The notes under the pieces: model-generated
Told to the model about the DNA's origin: nothing
Database searches by the model: none
Seen by the model: only the letters and a program-made list of their open reading frames with translations
Translations under genes and position numbers: made by a program
NCBI GenBank assembly: GCA_025055115.1
Contig: JANWYJ010000084.1
Span: 1-54,250 of the forward strand
DNA length: 54,250 nt
Reading direction: 5' to 3'
From: Gemmata sp.
Lineage (GTDB): Bacteria; Planctomycetota; Planctomycetia; Gemmatales; Gemmataceae
In this document: in pieces, positions 25,012-47,861 of the stretch
How positions within the stretch are numbered: the stretch's first letter is position 1
How the letters are laid out: the number at the start of each line of letters is the position of its first letter

Positions 25012-25023
25012 CGGACCCGGCCG

Positions 25024-29461: not shown

Positions 29462-30172
29462 ATGAATCGGCGCGAACTATTGGGAACGTTGGGCGTACTG
29501 GGCACAGCTTCGCTCAGCCAAGCTCGCCATCCGGCCCCGCGGGCTGCCCATGCTGCCAAAGACGGCCCGATGTCGGCACCACATTTCCACTTTTGCGGCA
29601 TCCACATGGCCAAGAAAGACCCCAAGGTGCAATTCATTACCCAACACTACTGCGCGGCTCATACCGGCGGTCCGGATGGCGATGTGTTCCAATGCACGCT
29701 TTACGACGGCACGGGCAAGAACGCCAAACTGATTGGTATCGAATATCTCATTACCGATGCCGCCTATCGCAAACTCCCCGACGAGGAGAAGAAATACTGG
29801 CATGCCCACACCTATGAAGTTCTCGGCGGCGGGCTGATTGCTCCATCGATGACGCTGGAAGAGGAAATGAAGTTCATGAAGCTAGTCCTGACATTGTGGG
29901 GCAAGGCGTGGCACACCTGGCCCGACCCGACCACATCGGTTCCGTTAGGAGAACCGTTATTAATCTGGTCGTTGATGGGCGATGGTCAAGTCGATGAAAA
30001 GCTTCAAGCCCAACGAGATAAAGAGTTTAAGGTCGATACGGCTCAGATTCGCCAACAGCGGGAAAAGGCCTTCGGCCTTCGCGCCCCTAATGTCTCAGTG
30101 CCGAAAGACCTCAATACGATCGGTCGGATGTGGACGGATACCGGGGACGATCAGCCAACGCCCCTCAAGTGA
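29462..30172 (+). CDS. DUF1264 domain-containing exported protein
   Basis: 236 aa from ATG 29462, with AAGGAG upstream; earlier in-frame ATGs lack an SD. The N-terminus (MNRRELLGTLGVLGTASLSQ) resembles a Tat or Sec signal. The mature domain has FHFCGIHMAKKDPKVQFITQHYCAAH and DGDVFQCTLYDGTGKNAKLIGIEYLI, then EEKKYWHAHTYEV, the pattern of DUF1264 (OBAP-like) proteins. The conserved His and Cys could bind a metal. Function is unknown; plant relatives are oil-body-associated. It probably forms its own transcription unit. Confidence 0.85.
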   Translation: MNRRELLGTLGVLGTASLSQARHPAPRAAHAAKDGPMSAPHFHFCGIHMAKKDPKVQFITQHYCAAHTGGPDGDVFQCTLYDGTGKNAKLIGIEYLITDAAYRKLPDEEKKYWHAHTYEVLGGGLIAPSMTLEEEMKFMKLVLTLWGKAWHTWPDPTTSVPLGEPLLIWSLMGDGQVDEKLQAQRDKEFKVDTAQIRQQREKAFGLRAPNVSVPKDLNTIGRMWTDTGDDQPTPLK

Positions 30173-30303
30173 GATGCTAAGAGTTGTCTGGTCATAGCTG
30201 GGTGAGAGACGGTTTGAAAACCCGACACAAGCCGAACGATAAGCCGTATTCGGCAACTATCCCGGTGTTTGCAAACGTTTTCGCACGATTGAGTGACGGG
30301 ACC

Positions 30304-30346
30304 GTGTCTGAATGGAAGGGAAGACTGTGTCTGAATGGAAGGGAAG
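30304..30346. repeat. 20-bp perfect direct repeat pair
   Basis: 30304-30323 and 30327-30346 are identical (GTGTCTGAATGGAAGGGAAG) with three bases between. They lie in the 279-bp convergent gap between the DUF1264 gene and the large minus-strand paralogue; nothing else is seen there. Confidence 0.9.
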
Positions 30347-30451
30347 GATTGATCACGTTCCCGGAAATCTGGGTGTGTTCGCGCCTGTGGTACCTTCGAT
30401 GGGGTCAAGGATGCAGTCCGCCACACGAGTACCGCAGGCGGGCGGAAGTTG

Positions 30452-33400
30452 TTACTTCAGGCCTCGTTCGGCCAGTTCAGCGGCCATGTCGCGGTGAATC
30501 CGGCGGCGGATGAGGAATTCATCCTCATCCAGCCAGGCTCGAACCGCCGGACTGAGGGCAAAATCTTCGGTCACGATGGCCCGCACCAGACTATCCACCA
30601 AGCGCAGCACTTGTAACGTGAAGTAACAATTGGTCGAGGAAGAGATCGCAAGACGATCTGGAAGCTGGAGCAGTTCTTCTAGGCGGCCTAAGGCCAGAGT
30701 GGGGGGGGCGAGGCCGAGTGTTTCTGCGTAAAGCAGCATCAACTCAGTATGTTGCCGGGGCGGCAGGGGTGGGGGTAGACGCAGTTGGTCACGAGCCATA
30801 TCAAGGATTCGCCAGCCGGCTTCCGTGTCGCCCGCGACGAACCACCCGGCCGCTAAGGCGATCCGTGGCCTTAGCGATGAATGGGTGGCATCATTGTTCC
30901 AGTGGCCGCGCTGGGGGTCCAAGGATTCCATCAACGAGGCGACCAAGGGAGTGCATGCGCCGCGGCGAGCCGCTCGGAACAGCCGCAGAGCCGCAGCTTC
31001 GATAGCCGGCGGTATCCCGCTGATCGAACATGCTCTGATCAGGTATTTAAATAGCGATTCGATTGAACGCGGTGTCGCCACATCACTGGCCATGGCCAGA
31101 AGCGACGATCGAATCATTACCGCCTGGGAGAGACGCTCAGTTTCGGTCCATCGGCCGGCTTGGAGCCACGTTTCGACCCACTCCAGCGCGACTGGTACAA
31201 GCGCCAGAAGTTCCTCAGTCATGCGGCAATCAAAATATGCCGCGGATTGAAGCAAGCTGTATACCACGCGCGGAACGGTGGCGGTTGTTGGTTCCCGGGT
31301 GGCGAGGGCGAGCAACGCGCGGCCTTCTTCAACAATGATGGCTGGATCGGTCTGTGCTGCAAACAGATGTAAGCGGTCGCCCAAGCGATCGGAGCCGAAG
31401 AATTCGCGCAGGTCGCGGCCACCGTAGGGCCGGACCACGCCGAGGGGTTGTAAAATCCGGGAGTGTTGCCGGAGGCGATCAATCGCATAGCGGGCAAACT
31501 CGGGCAAGTTGTCCCAGCGTTGTTGGAAGGGGGGGGGCCAGCCGGGTTTGGGCAAGGTGCCTTCATTGGCTTCTTGGATGCGCCACAGGAACAGATCGGC
31601 CAAAAATGCATGGGCGGCGGGGTCGACACGGGGGGCGACAACTAAGCTGAGGGCTTTGCGGGCCCACGCGGCCCAATCGCGGGCTAGTGTTCGCTCGCCA
31701 AGAACAGCCAAGCCCCAGGCGAGCATCAGTTGAGCATATTCGACGGTAGCTTTCGTTTCTGCGGCCAATCCCACGGCCTGCAATCCGCCTAGGCCGCGTG
31801 GACGTTCCACCCACTCGCGAATTGGCTTGCGCAGGTGTTTTAAGCGGTCACAGGCTTGCTTGAAGCGCTCGGGACTGGCCCGGCCATGAAACCGCAGAAA
31901 CGAAGGGGCGTCGAGGTCGAGGGCTGGTCCGCGGTCCTGGAGCCGGCGCAGGAGTCGATCGTACCACCGGGCCAGCCCGAGGGTGTCCCCATTGCCACCG
32001 CGGGTGATAGCCCAGCGGGCTAGCCAAGCGGCACGCACGGGAATGTCGTCGAGTTTCTGTTCCAACATCCCCACAATCCGCGGGAGCAGCCGGACCCACT
32101 CGGAGGGAACGGCTTGCTGGCCCATCCCACTGGCTATTGCTGCGACGACGCGACCGATCCCGGGGCGGCTGGGGGAACTGAGCCAGCGATCCCAACTGTC
32201 GCTATGGTCGACACCGGCTGCGCGGCACTCGGCGGCGGCCCATTGCTGTAACCACTCCTGGGGGGGAGGGGAACAATCCCAGATGGCGTTCATCCAGCAA
32301 AGAGCCGCATCGAGGGCTTGTCCGGTGGTGGTGTACAAAGTGGCGAGTTCAGCCCACCGGCGCGCCCGTTGTTGCGCAGGCAGTTGCGAAAAATCCTCCA
32401 GGATACGACCTTCCAACGCCTGGCGACGTAAGACCCAATCGTGTCCCAAGCGCAGGGCCTCGGTGGTGGCGAGGGGCCGGCCCGTTGGCGCGGCTTCTGT
32501 GTCGGAGGGAGTTTCTTCCGCCGGTGCGGGCTGTGCTGAAGCCTGGGAGGTTGGATGACCTGAGGGTCGCGCTGAGGTCGGTGGGAGAGATGATGCTCTC
32601 TTCCGCCGCATCCAACTGAGAATCCGCGCGCAAGATTGCGCAAACCAACCGTGCGCGCGAGCTTTCGTGGTGGTTCCGATGGTGGGTGGGGAGATCGTCG
32701 GGGTGGGTGGAAGAAGATCGATGGTCGTTTCTGTTTGCAGAGTAAAACGCTCGAAGTCCAACGCGCCAGAGCGTCCGTGATGGGGTATCCATGAGACAAG
32801 CGGTGGGATGGAGTGTTCGAGTTGCTGATCAAGCGGCTGGAAGGCGGCGACCGGCACGCGGTGCAGGGTGAAGCCCGCATCCGTCCGTTCCAGCCACAGG
32901 ATGTACCCTGGTGAATAGGACACGGCGCGGGCCAGTTGCTCGGCGCGAAGGTGTGGTCGCAGTTGAAAGCCGGATGGAACGTGCAGGGCGGGGAGGCGCG
33001 GATCCGAAAAGAACCCCATCGCCGCCGGTGGAAGTGCGGCAGTGTTATCCGCGGCGTTCGTAAGCCGGATCAGGATTCGCTGCTCGTCACCATTTTCGAT
33101 TCTGGCACAAGACAGCTTTCGAAGAAGGTGTTCGTTGGCATCTGAACAGAATTGGTCAAAGGCCGATCGTTGTTCGGGCGGAAAAACCCACAGCGTAGGT
33201 GGCGGCGTGGTCGCACAGGAAAGCAGTCGGGGATGGATCGTGATGGGTGGTAAGGGATCGTGGCGAGTTGGGATGGTTGGTTGGGGTCGGAGAGTGAGTT
33301 CATAGTGGACCGGTTGGGGAACAGGACCGGGGCGATGAACGACACCTTCAACCGGATGGCACAGCAATATCGTGCCAGTGGGAACTACCAGTTGTGTTGC

Positions 33401-33916
33401 CAGGGGATGAACCCAATCGCGTGCGACCCAGACACCCGGAAGTTGTTCGTAATAGCTGCGGATTTCTGGGAATTTGTGATCGAACGCCACCGAAGGGGCG
33501 GGGGGGGGCTGAACGGTGACCCAAGCATAGCCGTCATAGGGTTGGGTGAGGAACTGCCAGCCGATCAGAGGGCGGGGGCCGCGACACAGCCAGCGCAGCA
33601 GTGCGGTCATCTGGCGTTGCGGCAATTCATAGAGGATCGTTGGGGCGGATTCGGTTTTTTGGGGATACAACGGAACGATTTCGGCCCAGGAAGCAATCGT
33701 GGACGGAGTGGTGGCAGGTCGCAGCGCGGGGATAATCCCCCAACGGGCCAAACTCGCCAGGATTTCGCGCGACGGTAGTTCGGCCACCTCCAGCCAGACA
33801 CCACCGGCGGGGTGGTGCTCCACCCGCGTGGGAGCTTGGGTCAGTGCGGAGGGTACCAGCCCACTGGCGAGCACCAATCGCATGGTGTCCCGGGTCGGGA
33901 AGAAAAGTGCCGGCAT
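30452..33916 (-). CDS. Large protein of unknown function, paralogue of the next gene (FtsH cluster)
   Basis: 1154 aa. It is unmistakably related to the protein at 34172-37678. Both begin with FP..DT.R..L.SG.VP and end with a WL.EDE(F/Y)L.RRRIH.DM motif, and both have the order N-terminal beta-rich region (~1-430), low-complexity linker, then a long helical C-terminal region (~480-1154). Matching segments include WVARDWVHPLATQLVVP, LWVFPPEQRSAFDQFCSDANEHLLRKL, ALDAALCWMNAIWD and FARYAIDRLRQHSRILQPLG. The linker (about 425-475) is Ser/Pro/Ala-rich after a basic patch WMRRKRASS. No known catalytic motif or signal peptide is visible. It is the last gene of the minus-strand FtsH cluster; likely a scaffold or regulatory component. 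Confidence 0.85.
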   Translation of the reverse strand: MPALFFPTRDTMRLVLASGLVPSALTQAPTRVEHHPAGGVWLEVAELPSREILASLARWGIIPALRPATTPSTIASWAEIVPLYPQKTESAPTILYELPQRQMTALLRWLCRGPRPLIGWQFLTQPYDGYAWVTVQPPPAPSVAFDHKFPEIRSYYEQLPGVWVARDWVHPLATQLVVPTGTILLCHPVEGVVHRPGPVPQPVHYELTLRPQPTIPTRHDPLPPITIHPRLLSCATTPPPTLWVFPPEQRSAFDQFCSDANEHLLRKLSCARIENGDEQRILIRLTNAADNTAALPPAAMGFFSDPRLPALHVPSGFQLRPHLRAEQLARAVSYSPGYILWLERTDAGFTLHRVPVAAFQPLDQQLEHSIPPLVSWIPHHGRSGALDFERFTLQTETTIDLLPPTPTISPPTIGTTTKARAHGWFAQSCARILSWMRRKRASSLPPTSARPSGHPTSQASAQPAPAEETPSDTEAAPTGRPLATTEALRLGHDWVLRRQALEGRILEDFSQLPAQQRARRWAELATLYTTTGQALDAALCWMNAIWDCSPPPQEWLQQWAAAECRAAGVDHSDSWDRWLSSPSRPGIGRVVAAIASGMGQQAVPSEWVRLLPRIVGMLEQKLDDIPVRAAWLARWAITRGGNGDTLGLARWYDRLLRRLQDRGPALDLDAPSFLRFHGRASPERFKQACDRLKHLRKPIREWVERPRGLGGLQAVGLAAETKATVEYAQLMLAWGLAVLGERTLARDWAAWARKALSLVVAPRVDPAAHAFLADLFLWRIQEANEGTLPKPGWPPPFQQRWDNLPEFARYAIDRLRQHSRILQPLGVVRPYGGRDLREFFGSDRLGDRLHLFAAQTDPAIIVEEGRALLALATREPTTATVPRVVYSLLQSAAYFDCRMTEELLALVPVALEWVETWLQAGRWTETERLSQAVMIRSSLLAMASDVATPRSIESLFKYLIRACSISGIPPAIEAAALRLFRAARRGACTPLVASLMESLDPQRGHWNNDATHSSLRPRIALAAGWFVAGDTEAGWRILDMARDQLRLPPPLPPRQHTELMLLYAETLGLAPPTLALGRLEELLQLPDRLAISSSTNCYFTLQVLRLVDSLVRAIVTEDFALSPAVRAWLDEDEFLIRRRIHRDMAAELAERGLK

Positions 33917-33931
33917 GTCGCCAGTTTAGTA

Positions 33932-34106
33932 CGTGTTCGGATCCCTGGGCAACCAGGGGGCCAGCTCCAGCGCTTCGCGGCACTGACTCTCGACCACATC
34001 GGTTCGTGTTTGAACCCCCGGGCCACCAGAGGGCCAGCTTCCCCAGTGCCGGCCAGCTGTGGGTGTGAGAAGAAGTGATATGTCAGCTGTGGGCGTGAGA
34101 AGTGAT
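33932..34106. repeat. Two direct repeat pairs between the two giant paralogues
   Basis: 33932-33968 and 34005-34042 (about 37 bp, ~78 percent) share CGTGTT, GGGC.ACCAG and GGGCCAGCT. 34054-34079 and 34084-34106 are 26 and 23 bp, with one mismatch and a 3-bp indel (CAGCTGTGGG.GTGAGAAG). They take up most of the 255-bp gap. Confidence 0.82.
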
Positions 34107-34171
34107 GGACCATTGGCCCCTCATGCCCGGAGTCTACCGGGGGTGATTAGGGGGAGGGAAGCCCGTTGGCT

Positions 34172-37100
34172 TCAGAGTTGATGCGCCTCCAACGCACGTC
34201 GCATGTCGGCATGAATGCGGCGACGAACCAAATATTCATCTTCCTCCAACCATTTGCGTGCCGACAGGCCCGAAGCGGATTCTTCCCCGATCAGCACTTG
34301 AATGACATCCTCTACCAAGGCAAGATGCAAGCGGGAATAATGTTGGGCGGTGGTGAAGGTGTTGGGGATTTTTCGGGGGTCCATCCGTTGGAATAGGTCC
34401 ATCAGCCAAGGTAACCCCATGTCGGGGGATGCTTGACCGATGGCCGACACATACGCTCGGGCCACGGCAGTGTAAAGTTGTGGCGGGAAAACCGCTGCCC
34501 GCTGATCGAGCAGTTGCTGGCGGGCCTCTTCTAGAATCGGCAGGGCCGGTTCACGAAGGCCGAAGTGCAACCACCCGCCCGCCAGGTTGAGGAGGGTTTG
34601 CAGGGCGGGTCCCCACTGCTCCGGTTTACCGCTGTAGCGTTGGCGTAGGGTGTCGAGGCTGGCGCCGCGGAGAACCTCATTTTGCAATTGCGTCAAGAAG
34701 CGGTCGAATTCATTGATCAGGCCAATCTTCTTGAGACTTCGCAGGCATTGACTCGCAACGATGTTGATCAACTTGAAGCGCAAGTCCTCAGGTTTGGCAT
34801 GAATGAGAGAGACAAATTCATCCACGAGCTGTTTGACAATCTCAACACGGTTGAAATGCCCCGCGTAGAGGAGGGCACGGCGTAGAAGTTCTCCCTGCTT
34901 GTCGAGCAGTTCGGTGGAGACCACCTTGGGGCCAAAGCCGACCGCCAACGCCGCGGGCACTCGCTCCAACAATTGCACTGTGAATTCTTCATTGATGCGA
35001 GCTGCCAGGGGCAATCCTTCACACAGAACGTGGAATCGGACCTCCTCGATGGGCTTGCCATGAACCCCGTCGGCGTAGAGTTTCCCGATACGTTCGGCGA
35101 GGTGGTGAGGCTGGCGGATATCTGCCAGCTCAGCCAGTTCCTTGGTGAGCGGATCGCTCCATTTGATCCAATTGGCGTAGGGATCGGGTTTCTCATGCGG
35201 CTCGAGAATCCACGACTCTTTGCGCATGCGGTCGATGCTGTATTTCGCGAGATCATAGGGATTATTCACAGGTCCGCGGCCATTTTTGCGACTCATCTGT
35301 TCCAAGTCATTGAGAATTTGTTGATCTAGGGGGCCGGCGTGGGGTTTTTCCGCGAGGGCTTGGTCGATGCGGAATTGGAAGGCCCGGAAGAGAAAATTGC
35401 GGACAATCGCCGTGATGATCGCGGGATCGTAGGGGTTGTCGCTGGTGGGGATTGGAATGACCATAGCGGCTTGGGCATCAGCGACCAATTTCCGCGCTTG
35501 CGTAGGCTCCCCCAGGCGGGCCAGAGCGAAGGCAAAAAAGAGGTCCACAAAGGGTTGGTTGGAAGCCAGCACGTCATTCCTCTGGGCGGTTGCCGAATTG
35601 TGGAGCCACTGACGAATGACGGCATGGAGTTTCATGGCCTCGTCGCGGATCATACGGCTGCGTCCGGAATCGCGCAATCCCGATTCGCGGAGAAAGTTAG
35701 GCAAGTCGCGTTCCGCCGTTAACCCTTGTGTCAGTAACTCTTCCAACAAACGATCGCGAATGCGAGCCAATCCCAACACATCCGAACCCGATAATTGCGC
35801 CAGGCGAAAACCTGCCAGCCACACGGCCCGGATCGGCAGGTACATCAGTTGCGATTCCAGGAACTGTTGTAGGGTGGGCAGTCGGGATTTTAGCCACGGA
35901 GGAATTGATCGTTGGGATGCGAGCCACAAAAACGCCGCGATCACCGCGCGGTTTTCATGGAGGCCGCGGATGGGCCGATGGAGGAGTTTGTCGAAATCTT
36001 CCGCGCGAATGGTTTCGCCGGCTTGCGGAAGTTCGCCGCGGACCCAGGCCCCGAGCCACTCGGGGGGCAGTGTGTCCATCGTCCACAGGGCGTTAAGCCA
36101 GGCAATCGCCGCGTCACGCGGTTCCTGGGCGCGGCTGTACGCCTCCGCCAACTGCGGCCAGAGGGCTTGGCGTTCGGGGGAATCCAATGGCCCGCTCAGA
36201 GCCAAGAATGCCTCCTCCAGCTCCTTGGCTTTTTGTTTCCATTCATTGGGACGGCGCAGCGGTTCCGGGGGCGGGAGGAAGTCCGCGGAATGACTTTCTT
36301 TGCCACCCTGAGAGACTGTTTTCGCGGATGTTTTCCCCGCAGCAGCAGCGCTTCTCGAGGCCTTCGACCCAACTTCACCGCGGGGGCTGTCTTTGCCACC
36401 CTTGTCGGGTTTGGGTTTGGGCTTGGGGCTGTCTTGGTCGGGGCAGACAAAGTGCTCGAAATCGAATTGGGTGGCTTGGATCCACGCTGTGAGCGGTTGT
36501 TGGTCACGGTCGATGACATACTCCACCCAGTCGGATAGGGAACGAAACGCAGCGTCAGGAATCGACTGAGGGGAAAAATGGCCGCCATCCGTCGGATAAA
36601 GCCAAACGATCTGATCCGGATCATCGGCGAGCAGTTTGCGAACACTATCGCGACGCAAGGTGGGGTGTAGTCGCGTTCCCAGAGGGAGAAAGAGATTGGG
36701 CAGTTTCCAGTACGGTTTGAAGGCCACTGCACGCTCAAGAGCCAAGGATGGTGGCGGGAGTTTGGAGGGCCGCACACGCACCACGGCGGTGGTTGTGCCG
36801 TGCGAGTCGGTCGCGATGGCAAACATCAGGCGCTGCAAGAGCCGTTCGTCGGCATCGCGGACCAGGGTATCCAACTGGTCGATGGCATTTTCGCGCACGA
36901 CCCACAGTTCGGGAGCATCCGTGGTTGTACTGGGGACTAACTTCACCGGAACAGTGATCGTCTGAGGATGAGCCACTTCGGACCACGTCACCGCCGCGGC
37001 GGGAAGCTGGAATTTCAAAACTTCGTAAACATCCTGGAATGGTCCATCGTCGAAATACCGCCATTCGTGGGGAGCACGAATGAGCAGAATCTGCTCGTCG

Positions 37101-37678
37101 GGCGCGCGGAGTTGATCGGCCAAAGGCAGAGTATACCCCAGTTCCACCCAAATCCTGGGTGCCTGTTCGCTGTAGGCATAGACGCGACCACGCGTGTTGG
37201 AGGCGGTTCGATCGATGGCACGCAGCAGCGTGTAGTACGGTGGCCCGATGACGCGCAGGAGTACCCCCTGACCACGGCTACGCTCTGGTGTGGCGAACCA
37301 GCGGAAACTTTGGCGATCGTTGCCCAAGCGCAGCATTTCGCTGACCAAAACGGGGAAATCGTCGCTGTACTCCAACTCAAATAGGATCGGTGCTTGCTGG
37401 GTGATGTGAGGAGCGGCCGTTTCGCGACGGAGCGGAAGCAGTTGGAGCCAGCACGAGACTTCCAACAGGCGCTCGTGAGCATGCCGCTTCGACCCCTTGA
37501 CACCGAGACGATCGAGATTTTTCAAGTTGGTTCTGGATAATTCGGCCGCTGTTTCGATGAAAATCTTACCGTGGGTGTCGAAACTGGCTGTGGCGGGGGT
37601 GAGGGCTACCTCCGCAGGAACCATTCCACTGGTGAGAGCCACACGCAGCGTATCGAGATCAGGAAATAACAAAATCAT
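34172..37678 (-). CDS. Large protein of unknown function, first of two paralogues (FtsH cluster)
   Basis: 1168 aa. ATG 37678 is chosen because it aligns with the paralogue's start (MILLFPDLDTLRVALTSGMVP); the GTG at 37693 adds five residues. Order: beta-rich N-terminal region (~1-425); Lys/Ser/Gly linker (~430-485: PKPKPKPDKGGKDSP, then an Ala/Ser/Lys run); a helical C-terminal region that starts ELEEAFLALSGPLDSPERQALWPQLAEAYSRAQEPRDAAIAWLNALW, a TPR-like pattern; and a C-terminal WLEEDEYLVRRRIHADMRRALEAHQL. No enzyme motif, signal or membrane segment is seen. The differing linkers but shared ends suggest the two proteins act in equivalent or adjacent positions in one complex with the FtsH-like protein. 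Confidence 0.85.
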   Translation of the reverse strand: MILLFPDLDTLRVALTSGMVPAEVALTPATASFDTHGKIFIETAAELSRTNLKNLDRLGVKGSKRHAHERLLEVSCWLQLLPLRRETAAPHITQQAPILFELEYSDDFPVLVSEMLRLGNDRQSFRWFATPERSRGQGVLLRVIGPPYYTLLRAIDRTASNTRGRVYAYSEQAPRIWVELGYTLPLADQLRAPDEQILLIRAPHEWRYFDDGPFQDVYEVLKFQLPAAAVTWSEVAHPQTITVPVKLVPSTTTDAPELWVVRENAIDQLDTLVRDADERLLQRLMFAIATDSHGTTTAVVRVRPSKLPPPSLALERAVAFKPYWKLPNLFLPLGTRLHPTLRRDSVRKLLADDPDQIVWLYPTDGGHFSPQSIPDAAFRSLSDWVEYVIDRDQQPLTAWIQATQFDFEHFVCPDQDSPKPKPKPDKGGKDSPRGEVGSKASRSAAAAGKTSAKTVSQGGKESHSADFLPPPEPLRRPNEWKQKAKELEEAFLALSGPLDSPERQALWPQLAEAYSRAQEPRDAAIAWLNALWTMDTLPPEWLGAWVRGELPQAGETIRAEDFDKLLHRPIRGLHENRAVIAAFLWLASQRSIPPWLKSRLPTLQQFLESQLMYLPIRAVWLAGFRLAQLSGSDVLGLARIRDRLLEELLTQGLTAERDLPNFLRESGLRDSGRSRMIRDEAMKLHAVIRQWLHNSATAQRNDVLASNQPFVDLFFAFALARLGEPTQARKLVADAQAAMVIPIPTSDNPYDPAIITAIVRNFLFRAFQFRIDQALAEKPHAGPLDQQILNDLEQMSRKNGRGPVNNPYDLAKYSIDRMRKESWILEPHEKPDPYANWIKWSDPLTKELAELADIRQPHHLAERIGKLYADGVHGKPIEEVRFHVLCEGLPLAARINEEFTVQLLERVPAALAVGFGPKVVSTELLDKQGELLRRALLYAGHFNRVEIVKQLVDEFVSLIHAKPEDLRFKLINIVASQCLRSLKKIGLINEFDRFLTQLQNEVLRGASLDTLRQRYSGKPEQWGPALQTLLNLAGGWLHFGLREPALPILEEARQQLLDQRAAVFPPQLYTAVARAYVSAIGQASPDMGLPWLMDLFQRMDPRKIPNTFTTAQHYSRLHLALVEDVIQVLIGEESASGLSARKWLEEDEYLVRRRIHADMRRALEAHQL

Positions 37679-37732
37679 GGGTGTTGCGGGCACCGTGGGG
37701 TTGGACGAATCAACCGATCCCTACCAATCAGG

Positions 37733-37818
37733 AGAAACCACTCTCCTGGGAAAGACGCGGGGGGTAGAAACCGCTCTCTTGGGAAAGACGCAAGGGTTGG
37801 CCAGAAACCATCGCTCGC
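37733..37818. repeat. 33-bp tandem duplication with a partial third unit
   Basis: 37733-37765 and 37766-37798 are adjacent 33-bp units (AGAAACC.CTCTC.TGGGA core, about five mismatches). A third partial unit begins at 37803. They lie in the ~155-bp gap between the 87-aa gene and the first giant gene, inside the FtsH cluster. Confidence 0.87.
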
Positions 37819-37833
37819 GATGACGATGGACGC

Positions 37834-38097
37834 TTACTGTTGCTGACCGTGTTTTTGCCGTTGCGGTTCCTGCGCTTGTTGTACTGGTGTTTCGGGGGCT
37901 TTTTCGGCTTCCCGCTCGACGATCAATTCGCCGAGGTCTTCGGGTCGAAGCCCTTTGCCGATCAACTTTTCTACTAGCGCTCGGTGCATCTGTTCGTGTT
38001 CCAGGGGCAGAGCGTCGGGGTCGGAATCGAGTTTGATGATGATGTTCTGTTTGCCGGTGTGGGGATCACGCCGCAGCAGGATGGTCAGTTCCGCCAT
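37834..38097 (-). CDS. Small protein of unknown function in the FtsH cluster
   Basis: 87 aa from ATG 38097, 9 bp after the stop of the FtsH-like gene (transcriptionally downstream), so cotranslated. The N-terminal ~55 residues look like a compact b-b-a unit (ELTILLRRDPHTGKQNIIIKLDSDPDALPLEHEQMHRALVEKLI); the tail is Glu/Gln/Pro-rich (AEKAPETPVQQAQEPQRQKHGQQQ) and probably disordered. I do not recognise a family. Small beta-containing partners of this kind are reported in predicted FtsH-type ternary systems, but that link is inference. Confidence 0.7.
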   Translation of the reverse strand: MAELTILLRRDPHTGKQNIIIKLDSDPDALPLEHEQMHRALVEKLIGKGLRPEDLGELIVEREAEKAPETPVQQAQEPQRQKHGQQQ

Positions 38098-38106
38098 CGT
38101 TACTCC

Positions 38107-40386
38107 TCAAGAGTGATTGGGGCCGTCGGGGGACGGCGCTGGCGAGGTTTTTTCCCGTTTCGCCGCTGCCGATTTATTTTGAGCGGGGTTGGGCTGTTTT
38201 GCATTGTCCGTAGCCGTGGTTGTTCCCGCACCGGCTCCCAGGCGGACTTCGGGTCCTGGAGCGCCGACATCCTGGGGATATTTCGCCCGCAGTTCCTCGA
38301 TGATTTGTTGCACCCGTTGGCCTTCGATGGTCTTTTTTTCGATCAACTCGTCGCGAAGTTGAATGAGGGTTTCTCGGTGTTTGGCCAGGATGGCGGCGGC
38401 TTTGGCTTGCGCTTCGACGATGATGGTATTGACCTGGCGGTCGATGGCTTCGGCCATGGAACTGGAGAGTACCTGCCGATCGCCTTTATGATCGCGGAAC
38501 GATCGCAGGGGGGCCGCCAGATTCGACATACCGCAGACCTCCACCATATATTCCGCGAATAACGACGCTCGCGACAAATCCGAATTCGGATTACCCATGC
38601 CACTGGCGCCGGTGGAGATGTCGCCGATGAGCAGGCGCTCGGCCTCGATGCCGCCGTAGAGCACGGTGATTTCGTCGAACATTTCGTTGCGGCTCATGCC
38701 GATCCGCTTTTTTTCATGGCGGAACTGGGTGAAGAAGGGCGCCCACGGCATATCGCTTTGGATGGTCACTTTCTCGGGTGGCGGATGATGGGGACAGAAG
38801 ATCGAGACGAGGAAGTGGCCCGCTTCGTGGGTCGCCACCACTGGCAAATCTTTTTCGTGCAGTTCGACTTTCTCATCGAACTCGGTCAGGGCGCGTTCGA
38901 TGAGTTGCGGTGTGGTGGGGCCGGTGATGTCTTCGCGCATGCGTAAGCGGGCGACCGCACGACAGATGGCGTTGATGTGGTCACCACTGAAGGCGGTGCC
39001 GGTGGCCGTGATGTAGCGGTTGCCGGTGCGATGGACAGCGTAATCGAGGGCTGCCGCATTGAACTGCAAGCGCATTTTTTCGTTGTAAATGGCGAAGATG
39101 GCCCGGCGGTCGTCATCGTCGGGATACGGAATATGAATGTGAAACTCGAAGCGACCGGGGCGTAGCAAGGCCGGGTCCAGCGATTCCACGAAGTTGGTTG
39201 TACCCACCACGAACACCAGCTCATCTTTGTGGAAGCCGTCCATTTCGGTGAGCAGTTGGTTCACCATGGAGTGTTCCACACCGCTGCCGGTGTAGGTACC
39301 GCGGGCGGTGGCGAAGGAATCGAGTTCGTCAAAAACAATGATCGAGGGAGCCGATTGCCGGGCTTTGTGGAAAATCTGGCGGAGATTCTCTTCGCTTTCT
39401 CCCACCCATTTGCTTTTGAGTTCTGGCCCGGAAACGATGGTGATGGCCGCGCCAATACTGGCAGCGATCGCTTTGGCAAAGTAGGTTTTGCCGGTGCCGG
39501 GGGGACCCCAGAAAATCATGCCACGAGGGATCAACTCTTCGAGCCGGGCGATCTCTTCGGGGTCGGTGGCGCGATCGCGTTTTTGCAATGTCTCAAGGAT
39601 TTCAGCGCGGAGTTTTTGTTTGACTTTGGTGTAACCGCCGATGTCTTTGTCGAGGTCGACCGTGGGAATTTCCATGTGGTTGGCCAACGTCGCTTGGCGG
39701 AGCTGGGCAAAAGCTCGTTTCGGGTCAGCGGGGTAATCCTCGCCTTCGAGTGTCGATAGTAAGCGGCGCAGCCGGACGGCATTCACACCGGAAACGTACT
39801 TGTAGAGTTGCCACGGGGAGAAGTTCTTGCCGAATTTCCGGCTTTCCTTTTGGGTCACCAGATAGCGGAGCCGATGGCGGGGCACACCCAGTATGCTCAA
39901 TCCATGGGGAAAAAGATTTTCGATCACCTTCGGCAGAGGGAAGGAAGGGTCTTTGAACCCGAGCCAAACCAGCTCAGGGTTTTCGTACAGTAGTGGAATC
40001 ACTTCCCGAGCTTCGCTCGTCAGTCCGCCTTGGCTGGTGGTGAGCAGGTCGAGATGCGGTAACACGACCACGCGCCGTTCTGTGGCCCCACGGACCGCAT
40101 CGCGCAGCTGGGCAATCATCGTGCCGATGAGGCCCAGGGGGACCGCTCCGGACGTTTCGCGTTGCCGACCATCGAGGTAGAGGCATTGCAACTTGGCTTG
40201 CCGCAATCGGTCGCGGATATTCATGAACAGATAGGGGGCCAGCTCCTTGTCGCATTCGATCAAAGTGGGCAGGCCGCGGATGAGTTTGCCAGCGACTTCG
40301 GCCAGTTCCTGGCTGTAGGCCGCCTCCACCGCTTCGGCGGGGGTCAGGCTCGCGGGAAGCTCGTTTTCAGGTATGACGATGCTCAT
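38107..40386 (-). CDS. Soluble FtsH-like AAA+ ATPase with M41 zinc-protease domain and degenerate N-terminal ATPase-like domain
   Basis: 759 aa with no membrane helices, unlike true FtsH. Residues ~25-235 resemble an inactive AAA unit (no Walker A; Walker-B-like RRVVVLPHLDLL at 105-115; FKDPSFPLPKVIENLF), as in Ycf46-type proteins. The active AAA+ domain has Walker A GPPGTGKT (294-301), Walker B IIVFDE (349-354) and the SRH/Arg fingers (LDPALLRPGRFEFHI). The M41 domain has HEAGH (520-524) and the third zinc ligand Asp603 in PNSDLSRASLFAEYMVE. The C-terminus is a coiled coil then a disordered Gly/Ala/Thr/Pro tail. All catalytic residues are present, so it should be an active cytoplasmic unfoldase-protease. 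It is the central gene of the cluster. Confidence 0.92.
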   Translation of the reverse strand: MSIVIPENELPASLTPAEAVEAAYSQELAEVAGKLIRGLPTLIECDKELAPYLFMNIRDRLRQAKLQCLYLDGRQRETSGAVPLGLIGTMIAQLRDAVRGATERRVVVLPHLDLLTTSQGGLTSEAREVIPLLYENPELVWLGFKDPSFPLPKVIENLFPHGLSILGVPRHRLRYLVTQKESRKFGKNFSPWQLYKYVSGVNAVRLRRLLSTLEGEDYPADPKRAFAQLRQATLANHMEIPTVDLDKDIGGYTKVKQKLRAEILETLQKRDRATDPEEIARLEELIPRGMIFWGPPGTGKTYFAKAIAASIGAAITIVSGPELKSKWVGESEENLRQIFHKARQSAPSIIVFDELDSFATARGTYTGSGVEHSMVNQLLTEMDGFHKDELVFVVGTTNFVESLDPALLRPGRFEFHIHIPYPDDDDRRAIFAIYNEKMRLQFNAAALDYAVHRTGNRYITATGTAFSGDHINAICRAVARLRMREDITGPTTPQLIERALTEFDEKVELHEKDLPVVATHEAGHFLVSIFCPHHPPPEKVTIQSDMPWAPFFTQFRHEKKRIGMSRNEMFDEITVLYGGIEAERLLIGDISTGASGMGNPNSDLSRASLFAEYMVEVCGMSNLAAPLRSFRDHKGDRQVLSSSMAEAIDRQVNTIIVEAQAKAAAILAKHRETLIQLRDELIEKKTIEGQRVQQIIEELRAKYPQDVGAPGPEVRLGAGAGTTTATDNAKQPNPAQNKSAAAKREKTSPAPSPDGPNHS

Positions 40387-40389
40387 GGT

Positions 40390-40417
40390 GTATCACTTCT
40401 ACGTATCACTTCTACGT
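40390..40417. repeat. 13-bp perfect tandem duplication upstream of the FtsH-like gene
   Basis: The unit GTATCACTTCTAC occurs at 40390-40402 and 40403-40415, followed by GT of a third. On the minus strand it lies immediately before the start codon at 40386, where a ribosome binding site would be expected and none is visible. Confidence 0.88.
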
Positions 40418-40539
40418 CCGTGGTCGGTGGATCCGTTAACAACCTTCATTAGGGTCGCGCATTGGGTCCTGTTGTGGGATAAGCGCGAGCAGAACCAATC
40501 AATGCCAGACGCGGTCAGCGACAGATTTTGGCTTGGAGT

Positions 40540-41112
40540 TTAAACTTCGATTTTGATGGTGAGAGAACCACTTTCCGCATCTTCGCTGATTTCTTTGACC
40601 GTGCCCAACTGTTGGGCTTTTTGCTTGAGGGCATCGCGGGTGACTTGATTGACGACATCGTTGATTTCCGGGGTCAGGTCCTGCAGGTGTTTTTCCAATT
40701 TTTCCGTGGCTTGGCTTTGCAATTTTGATTGTTCGTGTTCGAACTGGCGTTCGAGGTCCTGTTTGAGTTGTTCTTTGACACGCTCGCGCAGACTGCGTTC
40801 CGTGGGGCCGACATCGTTGAAGCCGGTGGCTTCGCGTTTCGCTTCTTGCGTGATCTGGGCTTCAGTTTCCGCTTTCACAGAAACTTCCCCGGTGCACGGA
40901 TCAACTTTCACCGTTACGTCGCCATCGCGGCGGATGAGGGTGCCGTCGTCTTGTTCTTCAAAACCACGCCGTTTCAGTTCCTCCCGCAAGAGGGTGGCCA
41001 TATCTTCGGGGGGTAGAATTTCGAGCAGTTCGAGTTGCGTACAAATCTCGTCGCCTGCTTTCAGGTGGCGGGATTCCGATTCTTTCACAGTGATACGGTA
41101 AGCACGGCTCAT
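40540..41112 (-). CDS. Charged coiled-coil protein with N-terminal beta domain, unknown function (FtsH cluster)
   Basis: 190 aa from ATG 41112, with AGGAG upstream. The N-terminal ~80 residues (YRITVKESESRHLKAGDEICTQLELLEILPPEDMATLLREELKRRGFEEQDDGTLIRRDGDVTVKVDPCTGEVSVKAE) read as an a/b unit whose end resembles the DUF2997/DUF1257 pair found beside AAA ATPases in cyanobacteria and planctomycetes; I am not certain of that assignment. Residues ~85-165 form a long charged helix rich in Glu, Gln and Lys. The final strand is SGSLTIKIEV. It is probably a partner or substrate-adaptor of the FtsH-like ATPase encoded next. Confidence 0.75.
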   Translation of the reverse strand: MSRAYRITVKESESRHLKAGDEICTQLELLEILPPEDMATLLREELKRRGFEEQDDGTLIRRDGDVTVKVDPCTGEVSVKAETEAQITQEAKREATGFNDVGPTERSLRERVKEQLKQDLERQFEHEQSKLQSQATEKLEKHLQDLTPEINDVVNQVTRDALKQKAQQLGTVKEISEDAESGSLTIKIEV

Positions 41113-41165
41113 AGCAGTTACTCCTCGCAAGCCAGGGGTCCAGAACAAAGATGGTCTTCAGGCCC

Positions 41166-42347
41166 TCACTCGGGACGATCCGTCGATGAACCCATTTCGG
41201 CGTCGTCAGTTCCTGGGTGCGGTCGGGTGGTGGTTCCCGGTCCACGGAGTGGTTCCAAAGTCGCCAAGACAGCTTGGGCTTGTTCGACCAAACGATCGCC
41301 GTGGACGGCTTCCCATTCACTTTTCCACAGTTGGCTCGCGGCGTAATCGTCATCGAAGAAGGCCACAACGCGAGCACGGGCTTGCCATTCGCGGAGAAGT
41401 TCCATCTGTCGGGGTACCGCCAACGCGGCCCGCTGGGTCTCGAGGCGGTCTGCCAAACGGGGCGGGCCACTGCCTTGCAATCCGCCGGTCCAAAATGCCA
41501 GGGTCGGGTTCAGGGACAAAATGGCGGCGTTGGTGCGTAGGATGAAACGCGCTAAATCGTGCCGGCGGGCACCATCGGCAGCTTCCAGATACTGCCGGAG
41601 AGTGGCATATTCGGCATGGCCAACCTGCCGCATTTTCGACCAGTCGCTGATTTGCCCCTTGGTGCGTTCATGGTTGATCCAACGCTGTTCGAGGTGGCGT
41701 TGGAGGCATTCCAGGAAAACTGCGCGTTGTTCGTGAAAAAGCGGCCTGAAATCGGGCAGTTGCGGTGGTTGGTTCTCCGGCGCCGTCAGATCCCCAGGAG
41801 CCAAGAGCCAGCAGAAGGGGTTGCGTTGGAAGGCCGCTCGGCGGCGCAGTACGGGCAACAGTTGGGGGTCGTGGCGGATGGCATCGAACGCCAAAGCGAA
41901 GAACAATTCGTCGGCGGGGGTGAGAGTTTCCGGGGTGGCGTCCCAGGCTTTTTTGCTGTCGTGAACCTTCTCGGCGGTCAGCCAAATGAGGAATTCCAGC
42001 ACCGGTTGCGACAACTGTAAAATCCGTTCTTCAAGCGGAATTCGCTGCCAGACGCGGCCTGGGACGGGCGCTGAACCCCGGAGGAACGTCTCGTTGCGCC
42101 AGCCACCGGCGCGTACGAGGAACAACACCATCGCCTTGGCCAGCGTATCTTTCACTAATTCCACGGCATTCCGACTCAAACAGGGCGGTTGCGGCACCGC
42201 GGCGCGGATCAGTTGCAATCCTTGGTCAGCCGGAAAATGCCCCAGGAGGAAACGTGTGATCCGCAGGAGATTGAACTCAAACTTCGAGACCGGCCGCGGG
42301 CTAGGGGAGGGGGCCGGTGGTGGAGGGGAAGTGGCGATTGACGACAT
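41166..42347 (-). CDS. Helical protein of unknown function (FtsH cluster)
   Basis: 393 aa from ATG 42347. A Ser/Pro-rich start (~1-20) is followed by an almost wholly alpha-helical body (FEFNLLRITRFLLGHFPADQGLQLIRAA, ILQLSQPVLEFLIWLTAEKVHD, ELFFALAFDAIRHDPQLLPVLRRR, RHDLARFILRTNAAILSLNPTLAFW). The C-terminus is a disordered Thr/Pro/Asp tail. I recognise no family or catalytic motif, and it has no signal peptide. Its gap to the radical-SAM gene is 27 bp, so the two are cotranscribed. It may be a fixed component of the FtsH-type system. Confidence 0.75.
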   Translation of the reverse strand: MSSIATSPPPPAPSPSPRPVSKFEFNLLRITRFLLGHFPADQGLQLIRAAVPQPPCLSRNAVELVKDTLAKAMVLFLVRAGGWRNETFLRGSAPVPGRVWQRIPLEERILQLSQPVLEFLIWLTAEKVHDSKKAWDATPETLTPADELFFALAFDAIRHDPQLLPVLRRRAAFQRNPFCWLLAPGDLTAPENQPPQLPDFRPLFHEQRAVFLECLQRHLEQRWINHERTKGQISDWSKMRQVGHAEYATLRQYLEAADGARRHDLARFILRTNAAILSLNPTLAFWTGGLQGSGPPRLADRLETQRAALAVPRQMELLREWQARARVVAFFDDDYAASQLWKSEWEAVHGDRLVEQAQAVLATLEPLRGPGTTTRPHPGTDDAEMGSSTDRPE

Positions 42348-42374
42348 GGGTTGCCTAGTCCTTGTGAAGTCGTT

Positions 42375-43025
42375 TTACTTGTCCTGGGGTATCAACGGTA
42401 GAGGCTTTTTCCGCTTCCAGCCGCGCCACAACCCGGCCGCCTGCGCTGCGGGGAAGCCGTTGACGGTGATTGTGCCGTTATTCATGCGGATTTCGAGGGT
42501 ATTCCGTTGCAACCAGGTTTCATCGAAGCGATAACGCGAACTGAGGAAATGAATCTGCTGATTCCGCGAACCAATCCAGCGCCGTTGTGTTTCCGGTTGT
42601 TCGCGGATATACGGACCATCAACCAGAATATCGGTGAGGGCGAGTAATTCTCCCACTTCTGGTTCCGGTCGTTGCCGGAGCTGCTCCAAGGTATAGCCAC
42701 TGAAGATCATGACTGAAAGATTCCGCTTCCGAATCTGGCGGACAAGAGCCAGTGCCGCGAACGCATGAGCAAATGGCTCACCACCCAGCAAGGTAATTCC
42801 TTCGATAGCCTGTTGTTGTTGTGTTTGGAAAATCCACTGCGTCATCGTGGCGACCGGGATGCGTTGCCCCCCCTGAAACGGTAAAAACTCGGGGTTGCAG
42901 CAGCCAGGACAGCGCAATGGGCAACCCTGAAACCACAGGGCAAAGCGCCGACCCGGCCCTTCAGCCTCTGTACAGGTTATCACTTGAGCGATCGGCAAGT
43001 CGATGTCCGTTGCCGGTGATTTCAT
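42375..43025 (-). CDS. Radical SAM activase-like protein (NrdG/PflA group)
   Basis: 216 aa from ATG 43025. The 4Fe-4S radical-SAM motif is CPLRCPGC (C-x3-C-x2-C, ~residues 35-42) in FQGCPLRCPGCCNPEF; SAM-binding LLGGEPFAHA (~79-88) follows. The fold is the short one of glycyl-radical enzyme activases. The C-terminal ~50 residues (RYRFDETWLQRNTLEIRMNNGTITVNGFP) are an unusual extra segment with a beta hairpin. No anaerobic ribonucleotide reductase or pyruvate formate-lyase gene is nearby; it is embedded in the FtsH cluster, so its target may be another protein of this cluster. Radical chemistry on a peptide or RNA is possible but unproven. Confidence 0.85.
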   Translation of the reverse strand: MKSPATDIDLPIAQVITCTEAEGPGRRFALWFQGCPLRCPGCCNPEFLPFQGGQRIPVATMTQWIFQTQQQQAIEGITLLGGEPFAHAFAALALVRQIRKRNLSVMIFSGYTLEQLRQRPEPEVGELLALTDILVDGPYIREQPETQRRWIGSRNQQIHFLSSRYRFDETWLQRNTLEIRMNNGTITVNGFPAAQAAGLWRGWKRKKPLPLIPQDK

Positions 43026-43126
43026 TTTTTCAAGCTCGTTGCCAGAATGTCCGCCGCTGGATCGTGTGTGGGACTTTCATTCCCTGACAATACGGCGTCT
43101 TGTCCTTATCAATTCAATCTGCCGCA

Positions 43127-44173
43127 TTATATCCGCGCCGGCAGTGACACCTGCCCCGATTTATCGTCGTCGATGCGGAGAATGATTGTACGATCCACAA
43201 ATTTCCGAACCGTTTCCATGTTGGTAGTCGTATGCCGGGTGATTTCTGCGACTCGATATTCGCTCGCGTCGTCACTCATGGCCAGCGGCAGCAGGAGTTG
43301 ATCGGCGGAATAAGGATCCACGGGAGCTTGGGAACGACGAAACGCCAAGGCCTGGTCTACGGCCTCGTCGGCGACCAATTCCGCCGGTTTGCCGCGTTCA
43401 CCCAATCCGAAAAATAATGTCGGTACGGGGGTTTGGCGAAAAATGATGGCCGCCATGGTCCCGGGATTGGCGGCGGTCCACTGCTCGATGCTGATATGTG
43501 ATTCCACCCCGGCGGCCTTCAAGCGGCTACTCAACCGGCGAGCCTGCCGCTGCGCGACCGACTCGGGCAGACCGGCGCTAGCGCTGATGCCGCTGGCCGT
43601 TGTCAGCAGGGGGCTTGTCAGCAGTGACAAGCCACGAAGTCGCTGGCAGGGATGGATCACGGCTCGGATTTCCCCACCCCCACGGGGATAGAACCCGGGT
43701 CGGATCAAGGTCAGATCGACATGAAGGCCCAGCCGCGCCATGTAACTGGCCCAAGTTATCGCCAAGAAGTGGTAACAGGGGGCATGGGCCGTATGAGTGC
43801 CGCCGGTGATGAGGATTTCACTGACGGTCCCACCTTTGAGAGCTAGGGGCAGATAGATCGTCTGCAACACCAATGCTGTGGAGCCGGCCGTGCCGATGGC
43901 GAAACGATAATCACCCGCCTGGACCGGCCCTGGCTCGAAGTACAGCACACTCGAACCTACCGTACCGCCTTTGTAATAGGCCCCGCAGATGGTCGCGGCC
44001 GCCCGCACACACATCAGGTGTTGTGGTTGTAAGCCGGGCTTGGCGCGCTTGGCGCGGATGTTGTACAGCTTGAAGGGCCGTTGGGTCAGCATCGACAGGG
44101 CGAGGGCCGAACGGAGAATTTGCCCACCCCCTTCGCCTTCCGAGCCGTCGATTTCTACAAGGCTACTGTTCAT
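43127..44173 (-). CDS. rtcA: RNA 3'-terminal phosphate cyclase
   Basis: 348 aa from ATG 44173. RtcA converts an RNA 3'-phosphate to a 2',3'-cyclic phosphate using ATP. Signatures: EIDGSEGEGGGQILRSALALSMLT at the N-terminus; RAKRAKPGLQPQHLMCVRAAA; FAIGTAGSTALVLQTI; RPGFYPRGGGEIRAVI; and the catalytic His in EITRHTTTNMETVRKF (~residue 314). Length is typical. No RtcB ligase gene is present. It stands 101 bp before the radical-SAM gene on the same strand, at the head of the FtsH cluster, so it may belong to the same transcript, but it could equally be independent. Confidence 0.94.
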   Translation of the reverse strand: MNSSLVEIDGSEGEGGGQILRSALALSMLTQRPFKLYNIRAKRAKPGLQPQHLMCVRAAATICGAYYKGGTVGSSVLYFEPGPVQAGDYRFAIGTAGSTALVLQTIYLPLALKGGTVSEILITGGTHTAHAPCYHFLAITWASYMARLGLHVDLTLIRPGFYPRGGGEIRAVIHPCQRLRGLSLLTSPLLTTASGISASAGLPESVAQRQARRLSSRLKAAGVESHISIEQWTAANPGTMAAIIFRQTPVPTLFFGLGERGKPAELVADEAVDQALAFRRSQAPVDPYSADQLLLPLAMSDDASEYRVAEITRHTTTNMETVRKFVDRTIILRIDDDKSGQVSLPARI

Positions 44174-45789: not shown

Positions 45790-45853
45790 CACAACTCGGC
45801 TCACTGAACTGAAGAGAAAGAATCTCACGTCCCCTCCAGTTTACCGCCAGCCA

Positions 45854-46239: not shown

Positions 46240-46427
46240 ACAAGCCCATGTCCCAGTTGCCGTTCGTGCCAGAGGGTCTGTGCGGTGGGCTGGCCGTAGC
46301 GCCACGCGGCGGCGGACCGGTCGTGCGGTTGCTGGTCATCAGGACTAGTGAATTCGGCTTCTCCCCGTCAGTCATGATGATCTGACTAGGAGAGCTTGCG
46401 CTGACAGATCCTCATCAAAGTGAGAGG

Positions 46428-46458
46428 TCAATTCGGCGGGGTGTCAATTCGGCGGGGT
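46428..46458. repeat. 15-bp perfect duplication of the 3' end of the response regulator gene
   Basis: 46428-46442 and 46444-46458 are identical with one base between. The right copy encodes the regulator's last residues (PPN) and its TGA stop at 46446-46444 on the minus strand; the left copy repeats those codons and the stop just downstream. Confidence 0.88.
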
Positions 46459-47859: not shown

Positions 47860-47861
47860 AG

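What the first reader, a model, noticed from the sequence alone, without database searches (positions are those of the whole stretch)
30452..43025. FtsH-centred seven-gene cluster: candidate multi-component NTP-dependent system
Seven minus-strand genes run in line: radical-SAM activase-like protein, helical unknown, coiled-coil protein, soluble FtsH-like AAA+/M41 protease, 87-aa protein, and two giant paralogues. Only two of the seven have recognisable catalytic motifs. Comparative genomics has predicted 'ternary' NTP-dependent conflict or quality-control systems built around FtsH-like or MoxR-like ATPases with large unknown partners; this locus has the right shape, but a radical-SAM enzyme and two giant paralogues in one operon would be a notable variant. 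The function is not established from sequence; conflict, stress or protein quality control are all possible.
Basis: partly seen in the sequence, partly recalled or inferred. Interest (0 to 1): 0.75.

Follow-up and report, generated by a model that had tools for sequence, protein, structure and literature searches.

The report
Dispersed FtsH ternary system with RtcA
The seven genes are the protease arm of an already predicted bacterial ATP-driven defence or stress machine (the FtsH ternary system); its two missing motor parts sit elsewhere in the same genome, and an RNA-end-processing gene, RtcA, is a conserved extra member that we did not find mentioned in the literature we could read.

Summary
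In detail: seven co-directional genes at the stated coordinates. Five match Pfam families named for 'FtsH ternary systems' (fvmX7 twice, fvmX3-analog, fvmX5, fvmX6); the others are an FtsH-type AAA+/M41 protease and an NrdG-like radical-SAM protein. Kaur et al. 2020 already describe radical SAM there, so it is not a new variant by itself. Presence agrees across 59 genomes (fvmX6/vWA: both in 30, neither in 27). NrdD was found in 0 of 59 genomes and no glycyl-radical domain in this one, so an NrdD-activase role is unlikely. The system is near-universal in the genus (18 of 19), which I read as favouring a resident damage or stress response over a patchy antiviral one. Function is inferred, not shown.

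The parts
30452..33916 (-). second fvmX7 giant (X7b), 1154 aa; fast-diverging tandem paralogue
   Evidence: Pfam PF20005 7.7e-51; median identity to five genus relatives 45%
34172..37693 (-). first fvmX7 giant (X7a), 1173 aa: alpha/beta N-terminal domain, low-confidence linker, long alpha-solenoid
   Evidence: Pfam PF20005 1.8e-115; AlphaFold2 model pLDDT 79.6, pTM 0.55
37834..38097 (-). fvmX3-analog, 87 aa, motif LPxEHExxH; candidate small substrate or adaptor
   Evidence: Pfam PF20002 4.5e-37; motif in 27 of 28; alignment A2
38107..40386 (-). FtsH-type AAA+ with M41 zinc protease domain, 759 aa, without a clear membrane segment; conserved 240-aa N-terminal region
   Evidence: Pfam AAA 1.5e-42 and M41 3.5e-30; HExxH in 37 of 38, Walker A in 37 of 38; N-terminal region
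40540..41148 (-). fvmX5, 202 aa as listed; probable true start near 41112
   Evidence: Pfam PF20003 1e-82; alignment A1
41166..42347 (-). fvmX6, 393 aa, all-helical apart from a short hairpin
   Evidence: Pfam PF20004 1.4e-151; AlphaFold2 pLDDT 90.6, pTM 0.86
42375..43025 (-). NrdG-like radical-SAM protein, 216 aa, Cx3Cx2C cluster motif
   Evidence: Pfam Fer4_12 2.3e-36; NCBIfam NrdG 99.8 bits, below its 126.1 cut-off; motif in 36 of 36
43127..44173 (-). RtcA, RNA 3'-terminal phosphate cyclase, 348 aa: head gene of the operon in this and many related loci
   Evidence: NCBIfam TIGR03399 350.2 bits, cut-off 250.05; HxxTN motif in 27 of 27; nearby in 22 of 42 loci

Best explanation
The operon is the FtsH arm of a MoxR-ivWA-FtsH ternary machine whose other arms are encoded at separate places in the genome, with a radical-SAM enzyme and RtcA added at its head. 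SHOWN: family membership of the parts, gene order, co-occurrence, dispersal of MoxR and ivWA, conserved ATPase and protease motifs, no NrdD found. INFERRED: the fvmX7 solenoid proteins recognise a damaged or foreign molecule; the MoxR-ivWA pair uses ATP to remodel the complex; substrate then reaches FtsH, which unfolds and degrades it, with fvmX5, fvmX6 and the small fvmX3-analog as scaffold, adaptor or substrate; the radical-SAM enzyme modifies a peptide or protein partner of the complex; [quoted passage not shown] I commit to a resident, vertically kept damage or infection response that works by regulated proteolysis.
For: Five proteins match FtsH-ternary Pfam families. Own genome: bpMoxR-type MoxR with the GxxxTAKS P-loop at C77:57275-58381 and ivWA plus ivWA-helical_N at C44. 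In G437 one run of genes reads X6-X5-FtsH-X3an-X7-MoxR-ivWA; MoxR follows X7 in 5 named loci, with ivWA too in L126 and L139. Presence over 59 genomes: X6/ivWA 30 both, 27 neither, 1 and 1 discordant; X6/MoxR 28 both, 26 neither, 3 and 2 discordant. Radical SAM in 30 of 31 X6-positive genomes. 18 of 19 genus genomes have X6. FtsH: Walker A, Walker B and HExxH each in 37 of 38, RPGR in 35 of 38. Median identity in the genus: FtsH 86%, neighbouring ALAD gene 83%, X7a 60%, X7b 45%.
Against: No experiment, expression data or complex model. The genomes are related, so co-occurrence is not independent evidence. The N-terminal inactive AAA domain said to mark the FtsH component was not detected. One family member's locus (G421, L069) shows fvmX5 directly followed by fvmX7, with no FtsH or fvmX3-analog at that place. 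RtcA is not near in 20 of 42 loci and is present in 9 of 28 genomes without X6, so it is not essential to the machine. That MoxR and ivWA act together with the window's operon is inferred from co-occurrence and from linked relatives.
Confidence: 0.6

Rival explanations
1. A dedicated antiviral conflict system, as Kaur et al. proposed for the whole class: fvmX7 senses phage, MoxR-ivWA fires the complex, and the cell stops the infection or dies.
For: The class prediction (PMC7159879, section 21 in full and section 35 part 1 of 2); fast divergence of both X7 giants; large multi-part ATPase assembly with a protease.
Against: Near-universal in the genus, 18 of 19, one fvmX6 match per genome, 20 other window ORFs scanned with no mobile-element or defence family among the matches, no fvmX5 match in 72,556 plasmid or 50,697 phage records, no fvmX6 relative confirmed in viral contigs (close relatives only). 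PADLOC gave only AAA matches to FtsH (IetA, TRIP13, DolB) and weak ones to fvmX5 (LeoB, LeoBC, Cyclase; E 8e-4 or worse) and to the radical-SAM protein (pVip, 2e-4). I noticed no exchange of effector genes in the 15 loci listed, but did not annotate them fully.
Confidence: 0.3
2. RtcA and the radical-SAM gene are only co-transcribed passengers; the machine is the fvmX-FtsH-MoxR-ivWA core.
For: 10 of 42 loci lack the radical-SAM gene nearby and 20 of 42 lack RtcA; RtcA occurs in 9 of 28 X6-negative genomes, and outside the genus within the family X6 and RtcA are not significantly associated (9, 3, 2, 4; p 0.14); RtcA adjacency needs only 3 changes on a quick FtsH tree, so it may be few inherited events.
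Against: Radical SAM tracks the system even when unlinked (30 of 31 X6-positive genomes; G437 has it 1.7 Mb away). RtcA-radical-SAM adjacency survives where fvmX6 identity to the window is down to 32-33% (L072, L075); all 27 pairs examined are co-directional with a median gap of 18 nt; all 22 RtcA-bearing loci of the 42 carry radical SAM.
Confidence: 0.25
3. The radical-SAM protein is an ordinary NrdG that activates an anaerobic ribonucleotide reductase and happens to lie here.
For: Best NCBIfam match is NrdG, 1.4e-28; its only solved relatives by sequence are pyruvate formate-lyase activases.
Against: Below the NrdG curated cut-off (99.8 of 126.1 bits); NrdD in 0 of 59 genomes while 6 of 14 control genomes ring; no Gly_radical match in this 98%-complete genome while 3 of 14 controls ring.
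Confidence: 0.02

Closest known systems
FtsH ternary system, simpler type (Kaur, Burroughs, Iyer and Aravind 2020, PMC7159879)
   Same: fvmX5, fvmX6, fvmX7 and fvmX3-analog proteins, AAA+ FtsH component, radical-SAM gene, vWA fused to an N-terminal helical domain, MoxR with GxxxTAKS P-loop.
   Different: MoxR and ivWA are not in the operon but at two other loci; RtcA heads the operon (0 occurrences in the paper's main text; its supplements and Figure 5B were not readable); fvmX7 is duplicated in tandem; near-universal in one genus.
MoxR-vWA beta-propeller ternary system (same paper)
   Same: The MoxR matches bpMoxR (PF20030, 1.6e-62), and X7a has a weak match to bpX2 (21.7 bits, cut-off 23.6).
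   Different: The vWA here is ivWA with a helical N-terminus; no beta-propeller family was among the matches of the proteins scanned.
Bacterial rtcBA RNA repair operon
   Same: Same RtcA enzyme family (TIGR03399 above cut-off); RtcB is present in the genome.
   Different: RtcB is on another contig (C93), and RtcA sits with fvmX genes instead.

Membership tests
FtsH ternary system | FtsH-type AAA+ with active ATPase motifs | tested here: met
   Walker A in 37 of 38, acidic Walker B pattern in 37 of 38, RPGR in 35 of 38; Pfam AAA 1.5e-42
FtsH ternary system | second, inactive AAA copy at the FtsH N-terminus | tested here: inconclusive
   No profile match between N-terminal and AAA regions (hhalign probability 0.1%, Neff 2.3); no Pfam AAA match in three N-terminal regions. 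The region is strongly conserved. No structure was predicted for it.
FtsH ternary system | MoxR AAA+ component, often with GxxxTAKS P-loop | tested here: met
   P0012 at C77, bpMoxR 1.6e-62, sequence GPPGTAKS; not on the window's contig
FtsH ternary system | divergent vWA fused to an all-helical N-terminal domain | tested here: met
   C44 protein: ivWA 2.7e-41 and ivWA-helical_N 2.8e-32
FtsH ternary system | the three core genes are neighbours (how the class was recognised; section 21 describes it by components) | tested here: not met
   Three contigs here. In single-contig G399 the three lie 0.4 to 1 Mb apart. Met in G437, L126 and L139. The parts are kept, the linkage is not, so I file it as a dispersed variant.
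FtsH ternary system | fvmX accessory proteins | tested here: met
   PF20002, PF20003, PF20004, PF20005 all far above cut-off
NrdG / glycyl-radical enzyme activase | a partner NrdD or other glycyl-radical enzyme in the genome | tested here: not met
   PF13597 0 of 59 genomes; PF01228 no match in own genome
Radical-SAM protein | Cx3Cx2C cluster motif | tested here: met
   36 of 36
RtcA | score above the curated cut-off of the RtcA equivalog model | tested here: met
   TIGR03399 350.2 bits, cut-off 250.05
Antiviral conflict system | protects against phage | not testable with these tools
   needs a bench test

The most novel reading that the evidence does not exclude
The operon is an RNA-damage-triggered proteolysis system: RtcA makes 2',3'-cyclic-phosphate ends on cleaved RNA, these ends or RtcA itself are the trigger read by the fvmX7/MoxR-ivWA complex, and FtsH carries out the response after radical-SAM modification of a small partner. 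This would parallel RtcA's role in Salmonella, where it is needed to make the tRNA-fragment signal for RtcR (PMC7790460, summary and passages seen), but with a protease instead of a transcription factor as output.
Probability: 0.15. Interest if true: 0.8.

Novelty: new variant of a known kind. Interest (0 to 1): 0.5.

Why it matters
FtsH ternary systems are, as far as we saw, known only as a prediction: the listings (5 of 5 papers; 1 of 1; 15 of 24; 5 of 5; 10 of 37) showed no title that reports an experiment on them. Here the recognised parts are identified in one genome, including two that a neighbourhood search would miss because the operon has broken up. That gives a concrete list of ten genes to delete and tag, in a family with cultured members (for example Zavarzinella formosa DSM 19928, locus L123). 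The RtcA link offers a testable idea about the trigger, and the lack of NrdD suggests that the NrdG-like enzyme acts on something else.

Tried and rejected
Rejected: NrdG activase. Rejected: the MoxR-DUF58 genes at 24022-26394 as the ternary MoxR; it is a canonical MoxR (AAA_3 214 bits, bpMoxR only 29 bits) on the other strand. Rejected: the C66 AAA+ protein as the ternary MoxR; it resembles a sigma-54 activator (by eye; it matches the window's NtrC-type regulator at 1.2e-92).

Led nowhere: residues conserved only where the radical-SAM gene is nearby, to find its substrate; none passed in fvmX6, X5, X3an, FtsH or X7 (3 to 10 negative loci each). Solved-structure searches with fvmX5, X6, X3an and X7 profiles gave only chance matches or designed repeat proteins. 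Foldseek found no match at E 0.001 or better for fvmX6 or X7a; VIA-align gave at best Z 7.1 (rmsd 5.3, 132 aligned) for fvmX6 and Z 12.4 (rmsd 32, 279 aligned) for the X7a solenoid, within the range of common helical arrangements. The X7a alpha/beta N-terminal domain was not searched alone. One sigma-54-type regular expression found nothing in the window. No Rfam match in 29000-46500. The upstream two-component pair 46444-49499 has a strong partner only in L051/L099 (apparently one locus), with weaker regulator matches in L072/L149, L012 and L074.

Results against the reading: with the fvmX6 family model, 8 of 392 phylum genomes matched, own included, and 2 were over cut-off, own included, so the recognisable system is narrow; RtcA is not near in 20 of 42 loci; G421's locus lacks FtsH and fvmX3-analog between fvmX5 and fvmX7; G425 has ivWA, MoxR and radical SAM but no fvmX6 match; G436, G167 and G121 have the radical-SAM homologue without fvmX6. 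Rows dropped before counts: loci with under 3 kb of upstream DNA in the adjacency count (14 of 56); FtsH rows under 650 aa in the motif count; matches under 80 bits in gap counts, which drops a 30-bit MoxR match in L123. My first adjacency count under-counted radical SAM (28 of 42) because long overlapping ORFs hid it; one search corrects it to 32. The presence sets were entered by hand; 'close MoxR' there means matches of 300 bits or more. Kaur's supplementary tables and Figure 5B were not readable, so RtcA could be listed there. Burroughs and Aravind 2016 (PMC5062991) is not held and was not read.
Full report
What is there. The window is a whole contig (C20) of a 4.93-Mb, 98%-complete genome. 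The nearest named locus in the genome collection is from an uncultured Gemmata sp. (fvmX5 91% identical). Pfam identifies five of the seven as FtsH ternary system families and the other two as AAA+/M41 and a radical-SAM activase-like protein. The link from these family names to Kaur et al. 2020 is my reading: the paper's main text does not use the fvmX names, but it describes FtsH ternary systems with these kinds of parts.

Conservation. With fvmX6 as query, 31 of 59 related genomes match: 18 of 19 in the genus (own included; the one miss is 68% complete), 12 of 18 others in the family and 1 of 22 beyond. Stretches were fetched from all 30 other positive genomes. Where the contig reaches far enough, most keep the order RtcA - radical SAM - fvmX6 - fvmX5 - FtsH - fvmX3-analog - fvmX7, with a second fvmX7 in some. 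Exceptions: RtcA is not next to the cluster in L070, L071, L073 and L074, radical SAM not in L074, FtsH and fvmX3-analog not in L069, and L068 has an extra gene before fvmX7. A scan of named genomes with an fvmX5 alignment gave 56 loci, mostly titled Planctomycetota, with a few Myxococcota or Deltaproteobacteria (Enhygromyxa, Plesiocystis and bins), one Verrucomicrobiales bin and one bin titled Bacteroidales. The pairs counted are all co-directional, for example RtcA-radical SAM 27 of 27 with a median gap of 18 nt and fvmX6-fvmX5 47 of 47.

The missing MoxR and vWA. The class is described with MoxR and vWA. Neither is in the window's operon. In G437, a genome of another family, the gene run continues after fvmX7 with a MoxR and a protein that is ivWA-helical_N plus ivWA. 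L126 (Planctomycetales bacterium 10988) and L139 show the same, and L121, L134 and L135 show MoxR after fvmX7; L017 also holds a MoxR match downstream. With these as queries, the window's own genome has one close MoxR on contig C77 and one ivWA on contig C44 (Pfam check); the C77 and G437 MoxR proteins are 74% identical. That the parts are really dispersed, and not split by assembly, follows from single-contig genomes: in G399 fvmX6, ivWA and MoxR are at 6.96, 6.42 and 6.00 Mb. Presence agrees: fvmX6 and ivWA are both present in 30 and both absent in 27 of 59 genomes (Fisher p 1.6e-14, but genomes are related); within the family outside the genus the table is 12, 0, 1, 5 (p 0.0007).

The radical-SAM protein. 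It is closest to NrdG but below that model's cut-off. NrdD was found in 0 of 59 genomes, while 6 of 14 control genomes ring, and no glycyl-radical domain is found in this genome. The protein is single-copy where found and present in 30 of 31 fvmX6-positive genomes, even where it is not in the operon (G437). In the three genomes that have it without fvmX6 or a MoxR of the close family (G436, G167, G121), it lies beside a gene for another AAA+ ATPase. So it looks like a recurrent partner of AAA+ machines. Its substrate is unknown; Kaur et al. suggested a peptide encoded by another gene of the system, for which the 87-aa fvmX3-analog is a natural candidate here, but the residue test gave no support.

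RtcA. It is the only RtcA found in this genome and scores above the equivalog cut-off. In 24 of the 28 genomes that have both fvmX6 and RtcA, the RtcA gene lies at the cluster (my count from the coordinates; exceptions G420, G422, G426, G437; in G420 RtcA is still next to the radical-SAM gene). Among named loci with at least 3 kb upstream, radical SAM is near in 32 of 42 and RtcA in 22 of 42, and every RtcA-bearing locus of these has radical SAM: a nested pattern, as if RtcA joined operons that already had the radical-SAM gene. On a quick FtsH tree with some long branches, RtcA adjacency (21 with, 15 without) changes three times, so it may be few inherited events. RtcA has 0 occurrences in the main text of Kaur et al.. 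Searches combining RtcA with FtsH, radical SAM, planctomycetes, Gemmata or gene neighbourhood showed no title on this link, in the 10 of 34, 5 of 5 and 10 of 37 papers listed. RtcB is present but elsewhere.

Rates and structure. In the genus, median identity to the window is 45% for X7b, 60% for X7a, 65% for fvmX6 and radical SAM, 71% for fvmX3-analog and RtcA, 81% for fvmX5, 86% for FtsH, against 83% for the neighbouring ALAD gene (5 to 15 loci each, alignments covering over 60% of the protein). The giants therefore look like the recognition parts and FtsH like the engine (inference). X7a is predicted as an alpha/beta domain (1-395), a low-confidence linker and an alpha-solenoid. fvmX6 is a confidently predicted helical protein without a clear solved relative.

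Conflict or housekeeping. For conflict: the class prediction and the fast-evolving giants. For a resident response: near-universality in the genus, single copy, ordinary neighbours (20 other window ORFs scanned, 18 with a Pfam match, none a mobile-element or defence family), no fvmX5 match on plasmids or phages. I weigh these towards a resident stress or damage response, at modest confidence; infection may be one of its triggers.

Verdict. A confirmed observation and a largely sound interpretation: by its parts, but not by their linkage, a case of a known predicted class, with one apparently unreported conserved partner. Confidence that it belongs with the FtsH ternary systems is about 0.9; confidence in the mechanism as worded is 0.6 at most, and the RtcA-signal idea is about 0.15.

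Noticed in passing
44254-44540: Four imperfect 35-40-nt repeat cores spaced 76, 77 and 77 nt with dissimilar sequence between them, upstream of RtcA; CRISPR-like spacing or regulatory sites. The exact 17-mer was found in 1 of 168 loci, L160, which is this same DNA. No Rfam match.
   Followed up: partly
24022-26394: Canonical MoxR and DUF58 genes on the plus strand, close to the operon but a different, ordinary MoxR.
   Followed up: yes
44776-45828: The ALAD (HemB) gene lies upstream of RtcA in many genus loci. In L068 a 451-aa ORF that looks by eye like a class-III aminotransferase sits between fvmX3-analog and fvmX7.
   Followed up: no
L163:7582-10165, L164:7442-9990, L166:8970-11423: Homologues of the radical-SAM protein beside other AAA+ ATPase genes (AAA_2 in two, AAA with AAA_lid_6 in one); L163 and L164 also carry a helicase-like AAA_11/AAA_12 protein. 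Possibly a separate AAA+-radical-SAM system.
   Followed up: partly
L013:8136-9188 and L081:8915-9901: A leucine-rich-repeat protein follows the ternary MoxR or ivWA in own genome and in G437, and MoxR in 2 of 7 other loci looked at (L084, L086); such proteins may be common in these genomes.
   Followed up: partly
46444-49499: Histidine kinase and NtrC-type sigma-54 regulator pair upstream of ALAD; the pair has a strong match only in L051/L099.
   Followed up: partly
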